IMG/VR virus record: IMGVR_UViG_3300027881_000108
Span: 1 to 20,576 of that record
DNA: 20,576 bases
Strand: one strand, 5' to 3'
From: a virus
The notes under the pieces: generated by a model
The model's input: the letters and a program-made list of their open reading frames with translations, nothing else
Told to the model about the DNA's origin: nothing
Database searches by the model: none
Position numbers and translations under genes: made by a program
Shown here: positions 1 through 13,898 of the stretch, in pieces
How the letters are laid out: every line of letters begins with the position of its first letter
Position numbering within the stretch: the stretch's first letter is position 1

Positions 1-2592
1 GGCGGCACTTATCGCCGCCGCCTTGACAATGGAGATTGCTTCCGAAACGGACAACGCATCTGAACCTGATAAATACGGAGCAGAATACTGATCCGCGCCG
101 ATGTCCCACAGATCCCCGCCCCGCCAGTTGTCCATGACCGCAACAGATGAACTGTTGCAGTAAAGTCCTGAATCGCCGGACGTAATCCTGTCTGCGTGGG
201 TATCGTCAACAGAAAGGTCTAACGCCCCGTCGATATACACGTTGATCGTGATTGTTGCGCCAGTTCCCAACGCTTCAAGGCGAACCGTAGTCCCGGCAAC
301 AGCCGATATAGTTCCGATGGAAGTGCTACCCCCGTCCTTCACACGGTACAAACCCGTCCCGTAGATGGTGTAAAGCGTTCGGCTGGTATCCCCTGTATAC
401 ACCCGGACTCCCGGCCCACCATTGGCGACCAACACATCAAACTCGCTCCAATGGTTCGCATCGGGAGTGAAATCATTGTAATAAGCGACAGACGGATCAC
501 CGCCACCACCCCAATCGGAACAGCGAATCTGATTCGAGTAAAGTTCCGGCCCCTCCGTCGTCCCGCCTAAAAACGGAGTCCAGTCTCCGGAAACAGGATC
601 TTCGTTGGCACGGTTGAAATCGTCGGAGTAAACAGTCGGCCTCGCATCCCCATCAATATCGTCGGAGTAAAGACCGTTTGAGGGATCGGCGTATCCAACC
701 TTCCGCAACGCCGAACCGGAGGTGAGGTGCAAGTTCTCTGAACCACCCGTCACATTCACGAAGTTCGCGGTCGAATAAGCGACGGATGCGGTGGAACCGG
801 AATAGCCTGTCGCGGAAGAATGGGCGCACGTTGTACGGGTGATCGTGCCATCATATTCGGTGGTGCAATTCCCGACATAGGAATTGTAAAGATTAAAAGT
901 CGCACCGCCCGTGTTCCCGTTTCGATAGCCATAAGTTCCATTACTGACGGAGGTACAGTTATAGACTTTCATCACTACGCCATCAGCAGATGCCGCAGAT
1001 GAAACATATATCCCGGCGTAGCCCCACCCATAAAAGAGTGAGTTCGTAACAGTAAAAGCACTACCTGAAACGGGATATAAGCCTCGCCCATTAGACGCGG
1101 TGGCGACGGTAGCGCGAGAAATTATCTTGTCGAATCTAATATCTGTGGTGGAACCCACACCATCAATTTCGATTCTCGCAAGCGTTGTCGCTGTCACATA
1201 ATCCCAACTGAATTGGATGCCAATGACCCGGACATAATCTTCTTGGATATAAAGAAGCCTTTCGTCGGCAGAAGGTCTTGTTATTCGATAAATGTTATCG
1301 TTCCACTTCCCGCCGTGCGACGAATTCGCTTCGATTTGCATATACCCGGTTGCATCCGTTGTCCAACCAGATATAGTTACTGCCGTCGAATCTGCTGTTC
1401 CACTTCCCGCATCTTGATTTGAGGCGCAAATTACTTGGGAAACGTAGTCATCCCCCGTCGCCGTGGAGATGTCATCCTGCATCGCCGCTTCCCAGACGTT
1501 CAGAGAAACGTAAGCGTGAGAACCACCCGAAAGCGTGAACGATCTCCCGTTCCCCGAAGCCGCCGAATCAGGATCAACATATCGGGTAACGATCCTGTCG
1601 ATATCGACGGCAGTTGGCTCATCTGCCCCAACAGAGAACTTGTACCGCCTGAAATATCCGTGGATGTCGTAGGCCGAGTCAGTTGCAAAGTCGGGAGTCC
1701 CGGCATCCTCAAGAGCGGAGCCGGAAGCCAGATGGAAGTCCTCACTTCCTGCTGTTACGTTCACGAAGGTTGCGGTTGAATAGGCGGCTGTAGATGTAGA
1801 CTGTGTGCCGTCTTCCGAATAGCAGGTTGTAAGCGTCATTCCAGAATCATAATCTACGCTTCCAGTATTCCCTGCGTAGCAGTTCTTTAACGCCACCGTC
1901 CCTGCTGCGTATGCAAATCCCTGAAACCCTCCCTCTGCCACGCAGTTGTAAACATTCGCCGTCGAACAGTTGATCTTTATTGCCGCATTATTTACGGTGG
2001 CATAGGCTCCAACACCATAGCCCACGCAGTTAAATATATCGACCTGCGCATAGGTTGCATCATTTATATAGATTGCCGCTTCGTAGTAGGTAGCATTTCC
2101 CGAGGCCCAACAAATCAGTTTCTTTAATTCAATGAGTCCCGTTGCTCCCAAATTATTTATCCGAAACGCATCTTGCCCATTTGCCGACGAACTGGTTTTT
2201 CTTAGTTGTAAACCAATAAACTTCGCATAAGGTTCTCTCATATCGAGAACACCCCCACCACTCCCGGCGGCTTCCATGCGGTATATCCCCGAGTTCCACT
2301 TCCCTCCGTGGCTTGAGTTCGCCTCGACCTGAATATATCCCGTAGTATCACAAGTCCAACCGTTGATTTGTGCATTCGTATCTGCCGTCCCGCCCCCTGC
2401 ATCCAAATTAGACGAGCAGACCGCTTTCTCAATCGAATCGCTTCCCGTAGCCGTGGAGATGTCTGCTTGTCGAGCCGCTTCCCATGCGGTAAGCGAGTCA
2501 TACGCGCAGTTCCCGGTAGTTAAAATCTGCTGTGTACCGTTCCCTGCGGCGGCGGCATCAGGATCGACGTATCTGGTATTCAGGGTTGCCAT
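1..2592 (-). CDS. Putative tailspike/receptor-binding protein: duplicated beta-helix modules plus LamG-like domain (partial at left edge)
   Basis: From an ATG at 2592, directly after the TAG of the upstream gene, the minus strand stays open for 864 codons to base 1, so the C-terminus lies outside the window. I translated it by hand. Residues about 7-325 and 337-652 are two copies of one module: each begins RYVDPD.AA.GNG, then has WEAA.Q.DISTATG, a GTAD...GWT.D.TGY segment, EANSSHGGKWN, and ends with FVNVT.GSE..HL.SGSAL. The low-complexity, Asn/Thr/Ser/Gly-rich middles (YNC, LKNCY, VTNSLFYG) look like rungs of a right-handed parallel beta-helix. Residues about 655-828 (DDFNRAN..., then a run of beta strands with VYIDGALDLSV) resemble a LamG/concanavalin-like domain. 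WDIGADQY follows at 829-836. The position behind the distal tail genes suggests host glycan binding or cleavage; no catalytic residues are identified. A bacterial-type surface beta-helix protein is the alternative. Confidence 0.8.
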   Translation of the reverse strand, partial: MATLNTRYVDPDAAAAGNGTQQILTTGNCAYDSLTAWEAARQADISTATGSDSIEKAVCSSNLDAGGGTADTNAQINGWTCDTTGYIQVEANSSHGGKWNSGIYRMEAAGSGGGVLDMREPYAKFIGLQLRKTSSSANGQDAFRINNLGATGLIELKKLICWASGNATYYEAAIYINDATYAQVDIFNCVGYGVGAYATVNNAAIKINCSTANVYNCVAEGGFQGFAYAAGTVALKNCYAGNTGSVDYDSGMTLTTCYSEDGTQSTSTAAYSTATFVNVTAGSEDFHLASGSALEDAGTPDFATDSAYDIHGYFRRYKFSVGADEPTAVDIDRIVTRYVDPDSAASGNGRSFTLSGGSHAYVSLNVWEAAMQDDISTATGDDYVSQVICASNQDAGSGTADSTAVTISGWTTDATGYMQIEANSSHGGKWNDNIYRITRPSADERLLYIQEDYVRVIGIQFSWDYVTATTLARIEIDGVGSTTDIRFDKIISRATVATASNGRGLYPVSGSAFTVTNSLFYGWGYAGIYVSSAASADGVVMKVYNCTSVSNGTYGYRNGNTGGATFNLYNSYVGNCTTEYDGTITRTTCAHSSATGYSGSTASVAYSTANFVNVTGGSENLHLTSGSALRKVGYADPSNGLYSDDIDGDARPTVYSDDFNRANEDPVSGDWTPFLGGTTEGPELYSNQIRCSDWGGGGDPSVAYYNDFTPDANHWSEFDVLVANGGPGVRVYTGDTSRTLYTIYGTGLYRVKDGGSTSIGTISAVAGTTVRLEALGTGATITINVYIDGALDLSVDDTHADRITSGDSGLYCNSSSVAVMDNWRGGDLWDIGADQYSAPYLSGSDALSVSEAISIVKAAAISAA
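109..630 (-). other. LamG-like domain inserted before the terminal beta-helix motif
   Basis: Residues about 655-828 of the left-edge protein differ from the beta-helix repeats. They start with SDDFNRAN, have strand-rich segments such as SEFDVLVAN and VYIDGALDLSV, and end with MDNWRGGDL. This pattern is typical of laminin-G/concanavalin-like jelly rolls found in phage and bacterial surface proteins. The domain sits between DIDGDARP (end of module 2) and WDIGADQY, two motifs that normally lie close together in this kind of beta-helix protein. The family assignment is by eye. Confidence 0.55.
619..671. repeat. 14-base direct repeat at the LamG insertion junction
   Basis: The 14-mer atcgtcggagtaaa occurs at 619-632 and again at 658-671 on the plus strand. 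In the protein it encodes the two YSDD sequences, one before DIDGDARP and one at the first residues of the LamG-like domain. It marks one edge of the inserted domain. Confidence 0.75.
637..2574 (-). repeat. Two diverged ~330-residue beta-helix module copies
   Basis: Within the left-edge gene, the segment starting at 2574 (residue 7) is repeated from 1584 (residue 337). The first 100 residues of each copy align almost without gaps. RYVDPD, DISTATG and EANSSHGGKWN are shared exactly, and the DNA keeps matching blocks, for example around the DISTATG codons near 1460 and 2455. The central beta-helix parts have diverged more. Copy 2 ends at about 637, where a different domain interrupts it. Confidence 0.8.
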
Positions 2593-7388: not shown

Positions 7389-7723
7389 TTCGACGGACTC
7401 CTGTCCTGCTTCTCGTTTATTCTTTCTATCGTCCAACGGGAGAGATCCAGCACCTTCAAGAACACTTTAGGTCCGTTCTGGACATGAAGCCGATCTATTG
7501 CTTCCCAGACAGCAAGGTGGTTGATGTCCACCGGCCCAGATGGTCCCATGATGAATTGATTCTGCACCAGACCAAAGATCAGAAACGCATCTTCGTTGCT
7601 TTCATGCATAGCGGGGCGACAGTCACCGCAGGGAGGTTCTTGCGATGGCTCCCTCATGGCGTATATATCTTTACAGGTCACACATTTCGCCAGGTTCTCC
7701 GCCCTCCACTGTGCGACCTCCAT
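7385..7723 (-). CDS. Tail assembly chaperone, downstream frame (gpT-like) with zinc-ribbon motif
   Basis: A 112-residue frame whose ATG shares one base with the stop of the upstream chaperone frame (TGATG at 7725-7721). It can also be entered by a -1 shift at the slippery heptamer just before. Residues 14, 17, 32 and 35 are cysteines in a CX2C-X14-CX2C arrangement, which suggests a zinc ribbon. The C-terminal half (NEDAFLIFGLVQNQF...GPVDINHLAVWEAIDRL) resembles short proteins found in many phages between the tail chaperone and the tape measure (DUF1799-like). In lambda, the equivalent T domain is made only as a G-T fusion and recruits tail tube protein to the tape measure. Here both fused and independent synthesis look possible. 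Confidence 0.75.
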   Translation of the reverse strand: MEVAQWRAENLAKCVTCKDIYAMREPSQEPPCGDCRPAMHESNEDAFLIFGLVQNQFIMGPSGPVDINHLAVWEAIDRLHVQNGPKVFLKVLDLSRWTIERINEKQDRSPSK

Positions 7724-8181
7724 CAGTTTTTTCCAGCCACCTCCTCCGACTCAATGTTCGCCCCGGTTATGAGTTGCAAGCACCTCCCTATGAAACGGGC
7801 GAACTGCGGAATGTTCATCAGCTTCAACTTGTTCTCCAAGGTACAAGGGATCTCCTTCTCGTCCTTGTCGAGCAAGTTTTTCCAGTCCTGAATCGCATAA
7901 TCCCAGATCATTTCACGTTCCTTCTTCTCCTGCACCTCTGTCTGGTCATAATACGTTCCCCGCTCCATCGCCCGGGTCTTGGGGTTATGGACCCACTCCT
8001 GGACTTTCTTACGGGTCTTCGCTTGGATGTCCTCGACCACTTCGGGGTTGGAGATGCGGATTTGCACCCTCCCTGCGTTCTCCTCTGGGTCGAGATACTG
8101 TATCTCCCCGTTCTCCTTGATCTTCGATTTGAAAAACTTGAACCACTCCCCCTCTGCCGCACCAGTAATATCGAACTTCAT
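7723..8181 (-). CDS. Tail assembly chaperone, upstream frame (gpG-like)
   Basis: A 152-residue protein starting at ATG 8181 with a GAGAGGGGG Shine-Dalgarno 4-5 bases upstream. A second in-frame ATG at 8196 lacks a good site. The segment WDYAIQDWKNLLDKDEKEIP followed by CTLENKLKLMNIPQFARFI is typical of siphovirus tail assembly chaperones, soluble proteins that hold the tape measure while the tube polymerises. The gene lies between tail tube and tape measure, the conserved location. The last codons are GGA AAA AAC TGA; the A AAA AAC heptamer would allow a -1 shift into the next frame, giving a fusion of about 265 residues. Confidence 0.8.
   Translation of the reverse strand: MKFDITGAAEGEWFKFFKSKIKENGEIQYLDPEENAGRVQIRISNPEVVEDIQAKTRKKVQEWVHNPKTRAMERGTYYDQTEVQEKKEREMIWDYAIQDWKNLLDKDEKEIPCTLENKLKLMNIPQFARFIGRCLQLITGANIESEEVAGKN
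7726..7732 (-). promoter_or_regulatory. Putative -1 programmed frameshift site A AAA AAC
   Basis: On the minus strand the end of the upstream chaperone gene reads GGA AAA AAC TGA. The heptamer A AAA AAC fits the X XXY YYZ rule and abuts the stop codon. After a -1 slip the next codons are CTG ATG GAG GTC, in frame with the downstream chaperone gene. An AGGAGG lies 7 bases upstream of the heptamer, comparable to the stimulatory Shine-Dalgarno of E. coli dnaX. I see no strong downstream pseudoknot by eye. Confidence 0.7.
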
Positions 8182-8208
8182 AAAACCCCCTCTCATTGTT
8201 ATTTGCTG

Positions 8209-8625
8209 TTACACCAACACCCACGGGCCTGTGGCTTTCCCGGTGAACTTGATCGTCGCCAGTCCACCCTTGTCGATCCCGATTGCGGTTGTCTGCACCA
8301 GCATCCCCGCCGCCGTGACCGTGGTGGTGTCGGGAGTCCAGTAGCTGGTGTTGTCCACATATAGCCTGATAGTGCTGATTTTGCTGTTGTTCAGGTTTGC
8401 ACTCAGGAGAACTTCCTGTCCCGTTGTGTCTCCGGGGTCGTACAATCCCTCGAATGACACGTCGCCATAATCGAGTAACCCCGTGAGGTACTGTTTTGCT
8501 GTGTCCCCGAAGGAAGTTGACTCGAGGAGGTCCGTTGAGATTCCCGGAAGTTCCCACATACCCATTCCAACAACCGTGTCTGCGCCGAGCGTAACCTTGG
8601 CGTTGTTGCCAGCCTTGAAACTCAT
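8209..8625 (-). CDS. Major tail tube protein
   Basis: A 138-residue protein starting with ATG at 8625. The start overlaps the glycosyltransferase stop as ATGA and has a strong AAGGAGG site 7 bases before it. The sequence is strand-rich. It opens with MSFKAGNNAKVTLGADTVVG, has GISTDLLESTSFGDTAKQYLTG (shown here without the middle of the tube), a LLDYGDVSFEGLYDPGD hairpin and closes with IGIDKGGLATIKFTGKATGP. This organisation fits phage tail tube subunits of the lambda gpV/HK97 class: short, lacking Cys, with D/E-rich loops. It is placed directly before the chaperone genes, as expected. The strong ribosome site is consistent with a protein needed in high copy. It is also a plausible acceptor for the glycosyltransferases encoded just upstream. 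Confidence 0.85.
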   Translation of the reverse strand: MSFKAGNNAKVTLGADTVVGMGMWELPGISTDLLESTSFGDTAKQYLTGLLDYGDVSFEGLYDPGDTTGQEVLLSANLNNSKISTIRLYVDNTSYWTPDTTTVTAAGMLVQTTAIGIDKGGLATIKFTGKATGPWVLV

Positions 8626-9320
8626 TTCACTTCCTCCTTCTGTGGTGGTTTGGTGACAAGGATGCCATGCTCCTCACGATGTTTCGCCTTGGCCTCCGCA
8701 TCGCTAAGTGTTCGGTACAGGTTCCAGGTTCCCTCAGTAATTATGAATTGTGACAAGTGTCCAGCCGGGGTCGATGTATCGACGAAAATCTCGTACCCGG
8801 CTTTTCGTAGGTCTGAACAAAATCCGATGTCCTCCCCAATCGGCTTGTCGGTTTCCGGGTCTTTACGGGAACGGAACCACGGCATCGGCATTTCCCTGAA
8901 CACCTTCATGTCGTAAAGAATGCACCCCGTCCCCGTTGCATCCACTTCGACAAGCGAGCCAGGTTCCCACTCGCTGACTGTTTTGTAATTCCCGATCTCT
9001 CCCCGAAGCATCAACGGATCGAAAGGCGGATACCTCCGGAACACCAAGCACCCGACAACAAGCTTCTGATGTGCCATCAGCCGCTCGATGGTTTTCGGAT
9101 GGTAGGTCTGGTCCGTATCCATCAGCAACAGATGTGTGCAGTTCGACTGTATTGCATCCCTCACCAACTCGTTCCTCATTTCATCAATCGACCCGCTACT
9201 TGCTCTCATGTAGATGAAGGGAGGTTTCTCCAGCGTGACGAATGAATCGAGAAACGATGCGGGAACCATATGGTAAGAAAGGGGCAATCCTATGCCTAAA
9301 CGCATATTGCTGATCTTCAC
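8622..9320 (-). CDS. Glycosyltransferase, GT-A fold (family 2-like)
   Basis: A 232-residue protein with a GTG start at 9320 that overlaps the upstream stop as GTGA; GAGGGGG lies 7 bases upstream. It has no signal peptide or membrane segment, so it should be cytoplasmic. Motifs fit a small GT-A glycosyltransferase: SIDEMRNELV (residues 44-53), THLLLMDTDQTYHP with a DTD metal/nucleotide-sugar motif at 68-70, EVDATGTGCILYDMKVF (125-141), GEDIGFCSDLRKAGYEIFVD with a likely acid pair E163-D164, and a His at 188 (GHLSQ). Similar proteins are found in phage structural modules and are usually annotated only as glycosyltransferase. Sugar donor and acceptor cannot be told from sequence. Coupling to the tail tube gene suggests a virion target. 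Confidence 0.85.
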   Translation of the reverse strand: MKISNMRLGIGLPLSYHMVPASFLDSFVTLEKPPFIYMRASSGSIDEMRNELVRDAIQSNCTHLLLMDTDQTYHPKTIERLMAHQKLVVGCLVFRRYPPFDPLMLRGEIGNYKTVSEWEPGSLVEVDATGTGCILYDMKVFREMPMPWFRSRKDPETDKPIGEDIGFCSDLRKAGYEIFVDTSTPAGHLSQFIITEGTWNLYRTLSDAEAKAKHREEHGILVTKPPQKEEVK

Positions 9321-10570
9321 GGCTTTACCCCCTCAAAGCCTGATTGCCAATGCACCGGGTGCGGAAAATACTTATGGTCAACGGGCATCCTTTTCAGCCC
9401 GACGAACCCGGCGTTCTCCATCGTCTCTTTCAGCAACGCCGCACTGTATGCGTACTTGTGCGGGGAATTTCTCCTGTCCCTCCACGAGTAGACGTAAAGA
9501 TCGTTGAACTCCCGGAGCCTGTCCGGGGTGGGATTTTGGATATAATCCTTTATGAGAACATCGTAGTCAGGCACGACTACGGAAATCTTCCCGCCGTGTT
9601 TCAGGAGGCGGAACCAGTACCGCAAGGCATCTCCTCCAGTCGGCCAATCGAAATGCTCGAGGATATGCCCTGCATACATCTCGTCAACTTCCCCCGCTCC
9701 ATACGGGAGAGCAAGGATGTCGCATACCAAGTCAGGGTTCCGTTCCTCATCAAGGTCGATGTTGACGAATCCAGGCAGATGAAAAGGACCGCACCCCAAG
9801 TTAAGACGTAAGCCTTCTTCTCCCTCTCCCCGAACGATTTGCTCATCCCAAAACCCATCGCCCCATTTCTTCTTGAGGCGATCCGACGTTTCAACGCAAA
9901 TGTCTTTGTAGACGAGCGTCCCCTCACTCTCCATTTCCTTGAAGGTTACGCCCCCCTCATGGTGGACATAGACATCGTTTGCGATGCAGATGCGATCCCC
10001 TGCCTCCCTCGCCCGATAGCAGAAATCTATTTCCTCCCCGCTACAAGGCCACATCCCCTCATCGAAATCCCCGATCTCATCGAACAGGGATTTCCTGAAA
10101 ACGAAACAGAAGCCTGTGATCCAGTTGACCTCCGTTACCACCCCGCTATACCCTTCGCGGTGCAAGGCTGCGGCCTTGTTAAGTTCATCCTTGTTCTCAT
10201 AAGCTTGGAGCGTAACCCTTTGATGGCCGGCGGCGTAGTTTGTCATCGGTCCAACGATGGAGAAGGTGTCCAACCGGGCTTCCAACAGATCAGCCCACCC
10301 GTGGGTCACGATGACATCGTTGTTCAGCAGGATAATCGTTTCGTGCTTCGCCGCACGGATTCCCTGGTTGGCCGCTACCGGGAATCCCTTGTTTTCTTCA
10401 TTGCGAATCATCGTGACATCGATGAACCCCACATACGGTCGTGGTATCGGCGGGGCAGATCCGTTGTCCACGATGACGAGTTCGTAATCCTCCGTTGTTT
10501 CCCGAATTGCCGTGATACATTCCAAGGTCAGTTCGTGCTGGTTCCATACCGGAATGATAATTGACTTCAT
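9317..10570 (-). CDS. Bifunctional GT2 glycosyltransferase - SAM-dependent methyltransferase fusion
   Basis: A 417-residue protein from ATG 10570, overlapping the upstream stop as ATGA. Residues 1-230 are a family 2 glycosyltransferase: SIIIPVWNQHELTLECI, VDNGS (34-38), NKGFPVAANQGI, LLNNDVIV (NND at 83-85 in place of DxD, as in rhamnosyltransferase-like enzymes), ITGFCFVFRKSLFDEIGDFD and SGEEIDFCYRAREAG with VYVHHEGG. Residues 250-417 are a class I methyltransferase: LRLNLGCGPFHLPGFVNIDL is motif I with the SAM-binding GxG-type loop and acidic end, VDEMYAGHILEHF is the motif II region, and HGGKISVVVPDYD follows. The protein is soluble. I infer addition of a sugar and methylation of the sugar or its acceptor, acting with the next gene. 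Substrates are unknown. Confidence 0.9.
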   Translation of the reverse strand: MKSIIIPVWNQHELTLECITAIRETTEDYELVIVDNGSAPPIPRPYVGFIDVTMIRNEENKGFPVAANQGIRAAKHETIILLNNDVIVTHGWADLLEARLDTFSIVGPMTNYAAGHQRVTLQAYENKDELNKAAALHREGYSGVVTEVNWITGFCFVFRKSLFDEIGDFDEGMWPCSGEEIDFCYRAREAGDRICIANDVYVHHEGGVTFKEMESEGTLVYKDICVETSDRLKKKWGDGFWDEQIVRGEGEEGLRLNLGCGPFHLPGFVNIDLDEERNPDLVCDILALPYGAGEVDEMYAGHILEHFDWPTGGDALRYWFRLLKHGGKISVVVPDYDVLIKDYIQNPTPDRLREFNDLYVYSWRDRRNSPHKYAYSAALLKETMENAGFVGLKRMPVDHKYFPHPVHWQSGFEGVKP

Positions 10571-10830
10571 GCAACACCTAATTTATCTATCATTCCGCGC
10601 ACGACACGCTTCAAGGGATTTTGTTCTTTCAATTCAACTTTTAATTCGTGCCGGCTGATAACACCCACGAATTCGGCAGCTTCTCCTTTCTCGACATATC
10701 TCACGGCCTTTATCCCTGCTATTTCGCCAGCGGCAAACCGAATGTCTAATGATCTGGTGTTTTTCACATCGATGCCGAACGCCGCACAAACCTCCTTGCA
10801 GATTGGATCATGACCAGTAACTAATGCCAT
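10567..10830 (-). CDS. Small phage protein of unknown function
   Basis: An 87-residue protein from ATG 10830, with a run of seven G's about 6 bases before the start serving as ribosome site. It is soluble and mixed alpha/beta: ICKEVCAAFGIDVKNTRSLD IRF resembles the start of small uncharacterised phage proteins in which an alpha helix with LG(I/L)D is followed by a strand of alternating hydrophobics. The C-terminal part is charged (ELKVELKEQNPLKRVVRG). It overlaps the glycosyltransferase fusion by four bases, so it may be co-translated with it. No function is assigned. Confidence 0.65.
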   Translation of the reverse strand: MALVTGHDPICKEVCAAFGIDVKNTRSLDIRFAAGEIAGIKAVRYVEKGEAAEFVGVISRHELKVELKEQNPLKRVVRGMIDKLGVA

Positions 10831-12806: not shown

Positions 12807-13352
12807 TTAGACTGATGCTGTGACTTCTGCCCCTTCGGACAAAGGCGTGTAGTGAATCACATACCTTCCGCTCGCCGTTCCCGCTTGCGTTCCGCCTTCG
12901 ATCAATGCGGAGATAAGCCCGACTCCGTTTACGGGAGGGGATGCTCCACTCTCGTATCCCAAGTCCACGGGTTCTGCGAGATACGAAATCCCCGCACTCG
13001 GACCCGCCGCCACCGCAGTCACACTCGAAACCCCGAGCCACATCGCCCTTGAGCCTGGGCCAAGAGTGGCAAGGGAAGCGGAAGCCGCCCCGATGTCTGC
13101 AATGCCGACAGCGGGAGTCGTATTCGTCCACCTGAATGCCAGGGTGGTAGCATTGGCATCAAGTACCGCCGTGATTTCCAAATACAAGGCGTGAACCTTG
13201 ATCCGGCCGATCACATCAAAGATTGAAAACGTGACAGGGTTCGTCCAGTACGTTGCCAGGTCTGTGAGAACGGCTGTCTCCACCCGTAACCCACCGACAA
13301 CATTCGCCACCATGTCATACGTTGATGGACTATATTTGTGTCCCATTACCAT
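12807..13352 (-). CDS. Putative head decoration/fibre protein, paralogue B
   Basis: A 181-residue protein from ATG 13352; AAGGAG lies 7 bases upstream and favours this ATG over a second one two codons later. It is a tandem paralogue of the gene at 13377-13898. Shared landmarks in order are VV.GL.V.T, a YW pair, IF.V.GRI...LY..IT, TTP, a DI.A segment with PG..., WLG, and the C-terminal Y.PLS.GA.VTA.V. It is rich in Ala, Gly, Thr and Val with almost no charge clusters, as expected for a beta-rich virion subunit. The position downstream of the major capsid gene suggests a head-decorating or head-fibre role; this is inference. No homologous family of known function is recognised. Confidence 0.7.
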   Translation of the reverse strand: MVMGHKYSPSTYDMVANVVGGLRVETAVLTDLATYWTNPVTFSIFDVIGRIKVHALYLEITAVLDANATTLAFRWTNTTPAVGIADIGAASASLATLGPGSRAMWLGVSSVTAVAAGPSAGISYLAEPVDLGYESGASPPVNGVGLISALIEGGTQAGTASGRYVIHYTPLSEGAEVTASV

Positions 13353-13376
13353 TGTATTTCTCCTTGTCGTGAAGAA

Positions 13377-13898
13377 TTAAACAGCCGCAGTAACGTATGC
13401 ACCGTCACTCAGGGGAACGTACTCGATATAGAAAGTGATGTTCCCATCAGTAGCGTCTGCAATCGAACCATCAGTCGTAATCCCGCCAATGAAACTTGTT
13501 CCATCGGCAGCAACTCCGCCGATGATAAAGTTGGCTCCCGGACAAATCGCCATCATCGGAGGACCAGCGATTCCACCCGCAGTTGCGACGGTTCCACCGA
13601 GCCACGCCACGCTATCGCCTGGAACCTTCGCATTGATTGAGGCGACTACCGCACAGATGTCCGCCTTGGCAATGACCGGAGTGGTGGAAACGTAGGCGTA
13701 GTTCGGTTGGGCCGCCCCTGCCATCGTTTCGGTGATTAGTGCGTACAGCCCCATGAGGCGAATCCGACCGAAGACGTTGAAGATCGTCGCGGTGTCGGCG
13801 GTCAACCAATAGTCGGTTGCCTCAAGGTTCTCCGTCGTCCGTACCACAAGGCCGCGTTTCAGGTCGCCCACGGCCTCCCTTGTTGATTTCTTAGCCAT
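13377..13898 (-). CDS. Putative head decoration/fibre protein, paralogue A
   Basis: A 173-residue protein from ATG 13898 with AAGGAG 7 bases upstream. A short basic N-terminus (MAKKSTREAVGDLKRG) precedes the region shared with the next gene: RGLVVRTTENL, YWLTADTATIFNVFGRIRLM, then STTPVIAKADI, VPGDSVAWLGG and the end YVPLSDGAYVTAAV. The middle has a Gly/Ile-rich stretch (FIIGGVAADGTSFIGGITTDG). No membrane segment or enzyme motif is convincing. The two genes share their overall plan and nearly identical leader sequences, so they arose by duplication. Possible roles are capsid decoration, or two subunits of a hetero-oligomeric spike. Confidence 0.7.
   Translation of the reverse strand: MAKKSTREAVGDLKRGLVVRTTENLEATDYWLTADTATIFNVFGRIRLMGLYALITETMAGAAQPNYAYVSTTPVIAKADICAVVASINAKVPGDSVAWLGGTVATAGGIAGPPMMAICPGANFIIGGVAADGTSFIGGITTDGSIADATDGNITFYIEYVPLSDGAYVTAAV

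What the first reader, a model, noticed from the sequence alone, without database searches (positions are those of the whole stretch)
8622..10570. Glycosylation cassette wired into the tail operon
Two soluble glycosyltransferases sit between the tail completion and tail tube genes. They overlap each other and the tail tube gene by four bases (GTGA, ATGA), so they are made together with structural proteins. Glycosyltransferases in phages more often act on host LPS or on modified DNA bases; this placement points to modification of the virion itself, most likely the tail tube or the Thr/Ser-rich small head proteins. Virion glycosylation is known in a few phages, but the acceptor and sugar here are open.
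Basis: partly seen in the sequence, partly recalled or inferred. Interest (0 to 1): 0.75.

Follow-up and report, generated by a model that had tools for sequence, protein, structure and literature searches.

The report
Phage tail-tube glycosylation gene cassette
An uncultured tailed phage carries sugar-attaching enzymes fused into the genes that build its tail; the same enzyme sits directly before the tail-tube gene in about 100 related phages, so these phages probably coat their own tails with a sugar whose recipe changes from phage to phage.

Summary
The first gene (9317-10570, -) is not a plain glycosyltransferase but a GT2 domain fused to a SAM methyltransferase. The second (8622-9320, -), here "GTB", is a small soluble GT-A enzyme with invariant catalytic residues. 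Its predicted fold is closest to STIV A197, lysyl-hydroxylase LH3, mimivirus R699 and ColGalT1, several of them protein glycosyltransferases. Among 105 distinct relatives, GTB lies directly upstream of the tail-tube gene in 96 and within three genes in the rest. The DNA between tail terminator and GTB is a variable cassette of soluble sugar enzymes (36 architectures in 82 loci). Tail-tube Ser94 is Ser or Thr in 121 of 122 GTB-linked tail tubes. It is Val in the one nested clade that lost GTB, and no GT2-family or GTB gene was found on those contigs. Most likely GTB glycosylates the tail tube in the cytoplasm, possibly at Ser94, and the cassette elongates and methylates that sugar. Virion glycosylation is already known (mycobacteriophages Che8, Corndog); Che8 gp108 has the same GT2-methyltransferase architecture. 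New here are a lineage-wide dedicated tail-tube enzyme, a swapping cassette and a nameable acceptor residue. Nothing biochemical is shown.

The parts
9317..10570 (-). 417-aa GT2-methyltransferase fusion gene
9932..10564 (-). GT2 domain (residues 3-213)
   Evidence: PF00535 9.7e-19, PF13641 8e-10; PDB relatives chondroitin synthase and GalNAc-T1
9392..9817 (-). class-I SAM methyltransferase domain (about residues 252-393; LNLGCG motif invariant in A1)
   Evidence: phrog_6636 1.2e-7, PF08241 8.7e-4 just under cut-off, invariant N257 L258 G259 C260 G261
8622..9320 (-). GTB: 232-aa soluble GT-A glycosyltransferase, constant gene upstream of the tail tube
   Evidence: synteny
9111..9119 (-). GTB DxD motif (D68, D70), invariant in 67 sequences
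8829..8837 (-). GTB GED motif (G162-D164), invariant in 67 sequences
8209..8625 (-). tail tube protein, proposed acceptor
   Evidence: phrog_10528 5.6e-8; model pLDDT 91 matches lambda gpV, GTA and monocin tail tubes
8344..8346 (-). codon of tail-tube Ser94, proposed O-glycosylation site (inferred)
   Evidence: S 118 / T 3 / Q 1 in 122 GTB-linked tail tubes; V in the GTB-less clade
8622..8625 (-). ATGA stop/start overlap GTB/tail tube
9317..9320 (-). GTGA stop/start overlap GT2-MT/GTB
10567..10830 (-). optional 87-aa ORF at the head of the cassette, function unknown
   Evidence: no Pfam or PHROG match; 39% identical copy in L001, absent in L003
10856..11281 (-). tail terminator, upstream border of the variable cassette
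   Evidence: PF11367 7.5e-9, phrog_176
7723..8196 (-). tail assembly chaperone, downstream of the tail tube
   Evidence: phrog_313 2.7e-6

Best explanation
It is a virion-glycosylation module built into the tail operon. GTB is a cytoplasmic GT-A enzyme that transfers a first sugar from a host nucleotide-sugar onto the tail-tube protein made right after it, most plausibly at Ser94 in a turn between two strands. The GT2 domain adds a further sugar and the fused methyltransferase caps or alters it. The modified subunits polymerise, so the tail carries many copies of a methylated glycan. In relatives the extension genes between tail terminator and GTB are swapped while GTB and its acceptor stay, which would give each phage its own tail glycan. 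Shown: gene order, domains, folds, conservation and cassette variability. Inferred: acceptor, site, sugar, order of reactions, biological role.
For: GTB-first and tail-tube-first searches converge: 105 distinct pairs, 96 adjacent, 7 with one gene between, 2 with two. Of 133 distinct tail tubes, 122 have GTB within four genes upstream, five lie near a contig end, and six truly lack it. Across pairs GTB is better conserved (median 45% identity) than the tail tube (38%) or terminator (31%). Catalytic DxD and GED are invariant. Fold neighbours: A197 Z 19.9, LH3 19.4, R699 17.8, ColGalT1 17.1, then generic GT-A near 14-15. 82 cassettes in 36 architectures, 226 proteins, no multi-pass membrane protein; enzymes include sugar C-methyltransferase, rhamnosyl-O-methyltransferase-like and sugar 4,6-dehydratase-like proteins and further GTs. 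Ser94 is the second most conserved tail-tube column; Val in the GTB-less clade, which is nested among GTB-bearing ones, with no GTB or PF00535 GT on those contigs. Precedent: Corndog O-methyltransferase and GTs lie in the virion operon (PMC4351075) and mycobacteriophage capsid and tail tube are glycosylated (Freeman 2023, as cited in PMC12363180 and PMC11600133); Che8 gp108 is also GT2-methyltransferase and gp110 is GT25-like.
Against: No biochemical or mass-spectrometric data. Synteny could be vertical inheritance: GTB-tail tube distances correlate (0.57) no better than GTB-terminator (0.56). Ser94 loss is one evolutionary event on a long branch, and three other well-conserved columns changed there too. 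The residue might be structural. Exposure of Ser94 in the assembled tube was not tested.
Confidence: 0.7

Rival explanations
1. Virion glycosylation, but another virion protein (capsid, decoration protein, tape measure or fibre) is the main acceptor; adjacency to the tail tube is inherited order.
For: Remote GTB relatives sit next to capsid or portal genes in other phages; a methyltransferase-GT fusion lies among head genes in L007; Corndog GTs lie by the protease yet act on capsid and tail tube.
Against: In this lineage GTB stays with the tail tube while head genes vary, and Ser94 tracks GTB.
Confidence: 0.15
2. The enzymes modify the host cell surface during late infection, for instance to block re-adsorption or superinfection.
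For: Phage GTs often do this (established knowledge); several cassette families (GT2, sugar methyltransferases, dehydratase) also occur in O-antigen and capsule loci.
Against: No multi-pass membrane protein among 226 cassette proteins; integrase on only 1 of 20 long contigs, so seroconversion of lysogens is unlikely; fold nearest to viral and protein GTs; strict tail-tube linkage.
Confidence: 0.08
3. The enzymes glycosylate modified bases of the phage DNA.
For: DNA-hypermodifying GTs exist in phages (Pyle 2024, cited in PMC12619734).
Against: A thymidylate-synthase-type match on 1 of 20 long contigs; none for TET/JBP, though that search had no positive control; sugar C- and O-methyltransferases and linkage to tail genes do not fit. 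The contigs are partial.
Confidence: 0.03
4. Neutral synteny: an old moron cassette fixed at this site, with no role tied to its neighbours.
For: Neighbouring tail genes are conserved too; distance correlations do not single out the tail tube.
Against: Cassette neighbours are swapped but GTB is almost never lost (122 of 128 tail tubes with readable upstream DNA); catalytic residues invariant.
Confidence: 0.04

Closest known systems
Mycobacteriophage Che8 virion glycosylation (gp108-gp110)
   Same: GT2-methyltransferase fusion (gp108) with two more small GTs in tandem; published to glycosylate capsid and tail tube (Freeman 2023, cited in PMC12363180)
   Different: Genes at the far right end, away from the tail genes; no significant sequence match to GTB or the GT2-MT profiles; its methyltransferase is TylF-like
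Cluster O mycobacteriophages (Corndog, Catdawg, Firecracker) O-methyltransferase + three GTs
   Same: Sugar enzymes embedded in the virion structural operon
   Different: Located between portal and protease; one of the three GTs (Catdawg gp36) is GT25 type by Pfam; no detectable sequence homology
STIV A197 (archaeal virus GT-A)
   Same: Closest solved fold, Z 19.9, rmsd 2.0 over 168 residues; thought to glycosylate the major coat protein, essential for replication (PMC10551542)
   Different: 19% identity; unrelated virus; acceptor also unproven
ColGalT1 / LH3 / mimivirus R699
   Same: GT-A domains acting on protein side chains (established knowledge); Z 17-19
   Different: Hydroxylysine or collagen acceptors; 12-16% identity

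Membership tests
Phage-encoded virion glycosylation system (Che8/Corndog kind) | phage encodes soluble GTs together with a sugar methyltransferase | tested here: met
Phage-encoded virion glycosylation system (Che8/Corndog kind) | virion proteins carry the glycan | not testable with these tools
   needs mass spectrometry of virions; phage uncultured
Phage-encoded virion glycosylation system (Che8/Corndog kind) | sequence homology to the proven enzymes (Che8 gp108-110, Catdawg gp33-36) | tested here: not met
   HMM and BLAST comparisons, best E 0.2-0.3; shared domain architecture only
GT-A fold nucleotide-sugar glycosyltransferase | GT-A fold | tested here: met
   pLDDT 94.7, Z 19.9 to A197
GT-A fold nucleotide-sugar glycosyltransferase | DxD metal-binding motif | tested here: met
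   D68 and D70 invariant in 67 sequences
Protein O-glycosyltransferase | transfer to a protein side chain | not testable with these tools
   only structural resemblance
GtrABC-type seroconversion cluster | membrane flippase and membrane GT | tested here: not met
   no multi-pass membrane protein among 226 cassette proteins, by a simple hydropathy scan
DNA hypermodification pathway | base-modifying partner (hydroxymethylase, TET/JBP) | tested here: inconclusive
   thymidylate-synthase-type match in 1 of 20 partial contigs; TET/JBP search had no positive control
Siphovirus tail tube protein | gpV-type tail tube fold | tested here: met

The most novel reading that the evidence does not exclude
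A large uncultured phage lineage has a dedicated tail-tube O-glycosyltransferase, inherited with its acceptor residue (Ser94), and a neighbouring hot spot where glycan-extension enzymes are swapped, so that tails wear a lineage-specific, diversifying glycan coat comparable to a bacterial O-antigen.
Probability: 0.45. Interest if true: 0.8.

Novelty: new variant of a known kind. Interest (0 to 1): 0.66.

Why it matters
Virion glycosylation has been shown in only a few phages. This would make it a near-constant trait of a widespread uncultured lineage, name enzyme, acceptor protein and residue, and expose a variable cassette that suggests selection on tail glycans (against host recognition or for adsorption). 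It is directly testable in a laboratory E. coli strain with two or three genes.

Tried and rejected
Close isolates: none; the best tblastn hits in the phage collection were 25-33% over the GT2 part and about 31% for GTB, blastn none, plasmids none. Sequence search of PDB with the GTB and tail-tube profiles gave nothing meaningful. Mirror-tree correlation could not single out the tail tube as partner. Profile comparison with single Che8 proteins was uninformative. Promoter/terminator scan found no more than shuffles. The TET/JBP search had no positive control. Freeman 2023 is not held and is cited second hand. The A4 tail-tube scan pattern itself demanded Ser94; the count was therefore repeated on 63 tail tubes found through GTB or GT2 (S 60, T 2, Q 1). 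Only the best 80 of 221 GTB relatives were examined.

Full report
Setting. The window is a 20,576-base IMG/VR record holding the structural half of an HK97-type siphovirus on the - strand: small and large terminase, portal, ClpP-like protease, capsid, small head proteins, head-tail connectors, tail terminator, the reported pair, tail tube, tail chaperones, tape measure, distal tail.

The observation. Two corrections. The 417-aa protein is a GT2 domain fused to a class-I methyltransferase, with the LNLGCG motif invariant in its close relatives. An 87-aa ORF of unknown function, optional in relatives, sits between tail terminator and the fusion and overlaps it by ATGA. The 232-aa protein (GTB) is hard to recognise by sequence, but its AlphaFold2 model is confident (pLDDT 94.7) and is a GT-A fold. 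The closest solved structures are STIV A197 (Z 19.9), LH3 (19.4), mimivirus R699 (17.8), ColGalT1 (17.1) and Mnn9 (16.7), clearly above the generic GT-A rows near 14-15. D68, D70, E163 and D164 are invariant in 67 sequences that include remote relatives.

Neighbourhood test. I scanned IMG/VR from GTB and from the GT2-methyltransferase, and separately from the tail tube, called genes with my own script, and labelled them with profiles. In 105 distinct GTB/tail-tube pairs GTB is directly upstream in 96, one gene away in 7 and two genes away in 2. Of 133 distinct tail-tube proteins, 122 have GTB within four genes upstream, five lie near a contig end, and six lack it with enough upstream DNA. By contrast the genes between tail terminator and GTB are a variable cassette: 82 complete intervals, 645 to 5,497 bp, 36 architectures. 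Its enzymes include sugar C-methyltransferases (PF08484/PF08421), RMNT_CmcI-type O-methyltransferases, a sugar-nucleotide 4,6-dehydratase-like protein, further GT2 and Gly_transf_sug proteins, radical-SAM proteins and NUMOD3 homing endonucleases. Of 226 cassette proteins none is multi-pass membrane by hydropathy, which fits a cytoplasmic acceptor rather than lipid-linked export. Median pairwise identity is higher for GTB (45%) than for tail tube (38%) or terminator (31%), and methyltransferase distances correlate least with the other genes, as expected if extension modules are swapped.

Other phages. Remote GTB relatives lie beside capsid or portal genes in unrelated phages: MW202711, MW202496 and Microcystis phage Mel-JY34, L070, L071, L077, L078 and L087. 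In L007 a methyltransferase is fused to a GTB-like domain, by my reading of the sequence, among head genes. So the family tends to accompany virion genes.

Acceptor residue. The tail-tube model is a gpV-type fold (pLDDT 91). Column 94, in a turn between two strands, is Ser in 118, Thr in 3 and Gln in 1 of 122 GTB-linked tail tubes; in the 63 found through GTB or GT2, where the search pattern did not demand it, the counts are 60, 2 and 1. It is the second most conserved column and the only Ser/Thr column above 95%. Thr93 beside it varies. The only close relatives lacking GTB (L207 and L213-L216) have Val there. No GTB or PF00535 glycosyltransferase occurs on those contigs of 10 to 38 kb (the GTB search has no positive control within that call, but the same profile rang in other genomes). 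They nest within GTB-bearing tail tubes that all keep Ser, so GTB and Ser94 were lost together. Limits: this is one event on a long branch, and G49, D63 and G69 changed in the same clade. Distant tail tubes without GTB (MissF, L218) also lack Ser here, but they are too divergent to weigh much.

Rivals. Host-surface modification lacks membrane partners, and an integrase was found on only 1 of 20 long contigs. DNA-base glycosylation lacks consistent base-modifying partners (1 of 20; the TET/JBP search is uninformative). Both are tested only on partial genomes. A different virion acceptor remains the strongest rival.

Relation to what is known. Virion glycosylation by phage-encoded GTs is established for mycobacteriophages Che8, Corndog and Myrna, on capsid and tail tube (Freeman 2023, read through PMC12363180 and PMC11600133). 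In cluster O the O-methyltransferase and three GTs lie in the virion operon (PMC4351075). Che8 gp108 is itself a GT2-methyltransferase fusion and gp110 matches GT25, the ColGalT family by established knowledge, although no sequence homology to the window proteins is detectable. The window thus works like these systems but is not shown to be a member by descent. What is new is the lineage-wide, tail-tube-specific linkage, the swapping cassette and a candidate acceptor residue with a natural negative control.

Confidence. Virion protein as target about 0.85; tail tube as the main acceptor about 0.7; Ser94 as the site about 0.45; identity of the sugar unknown.

Noticed in passing
window 7726-7732 (-): AAAAAAC just before the stop of the 157-aa tail chaperone, in register to shift -1 into the overlapping 112-aa ORF: a likely programmed frameshift of the gpG/gpGT kind. 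A-rich stretches occur near the end of this gene in most relatives.
   Followed up: partly
window 12807-13898 (-): Two adjacent small head proteins (181 and 173 aa) are tandem paralogues, 33% identical.
   Followed up: partly
L028:2327-4434, L031:1538-2443, L048:2099-2854: Homing-endonuclease-like proteins (NUMOD3 match in L031; the others by resemblance) sit inside the sugar cassette, a possible route for cassette swapping.
   Followed up: no
L049:3841-4833, L054:3302-4195: Radical-SAM proteins with the sugar enzymes; possible C-H chemistry on sugar or tail protein.
   Followed up: no
L007:7980-9203: Methyltransferase domain fused to a GTB-like domain, between the capsid/decoration genes and the head-tail connectors.
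   Followed up: partly
window 1-2592 (-): Distal tail protein has an internal repeat (TRYVDPD... twice), seen in the translation only.
   Followed up: no
L121/L238, L018, L038, L048, L106: Some relatives carry two tandem tail-tube genes behind one GTB.
   Followed up: no
L049, L056: Cassettes with two GTB copies, one at each border of the cassette.
   Followed up: no
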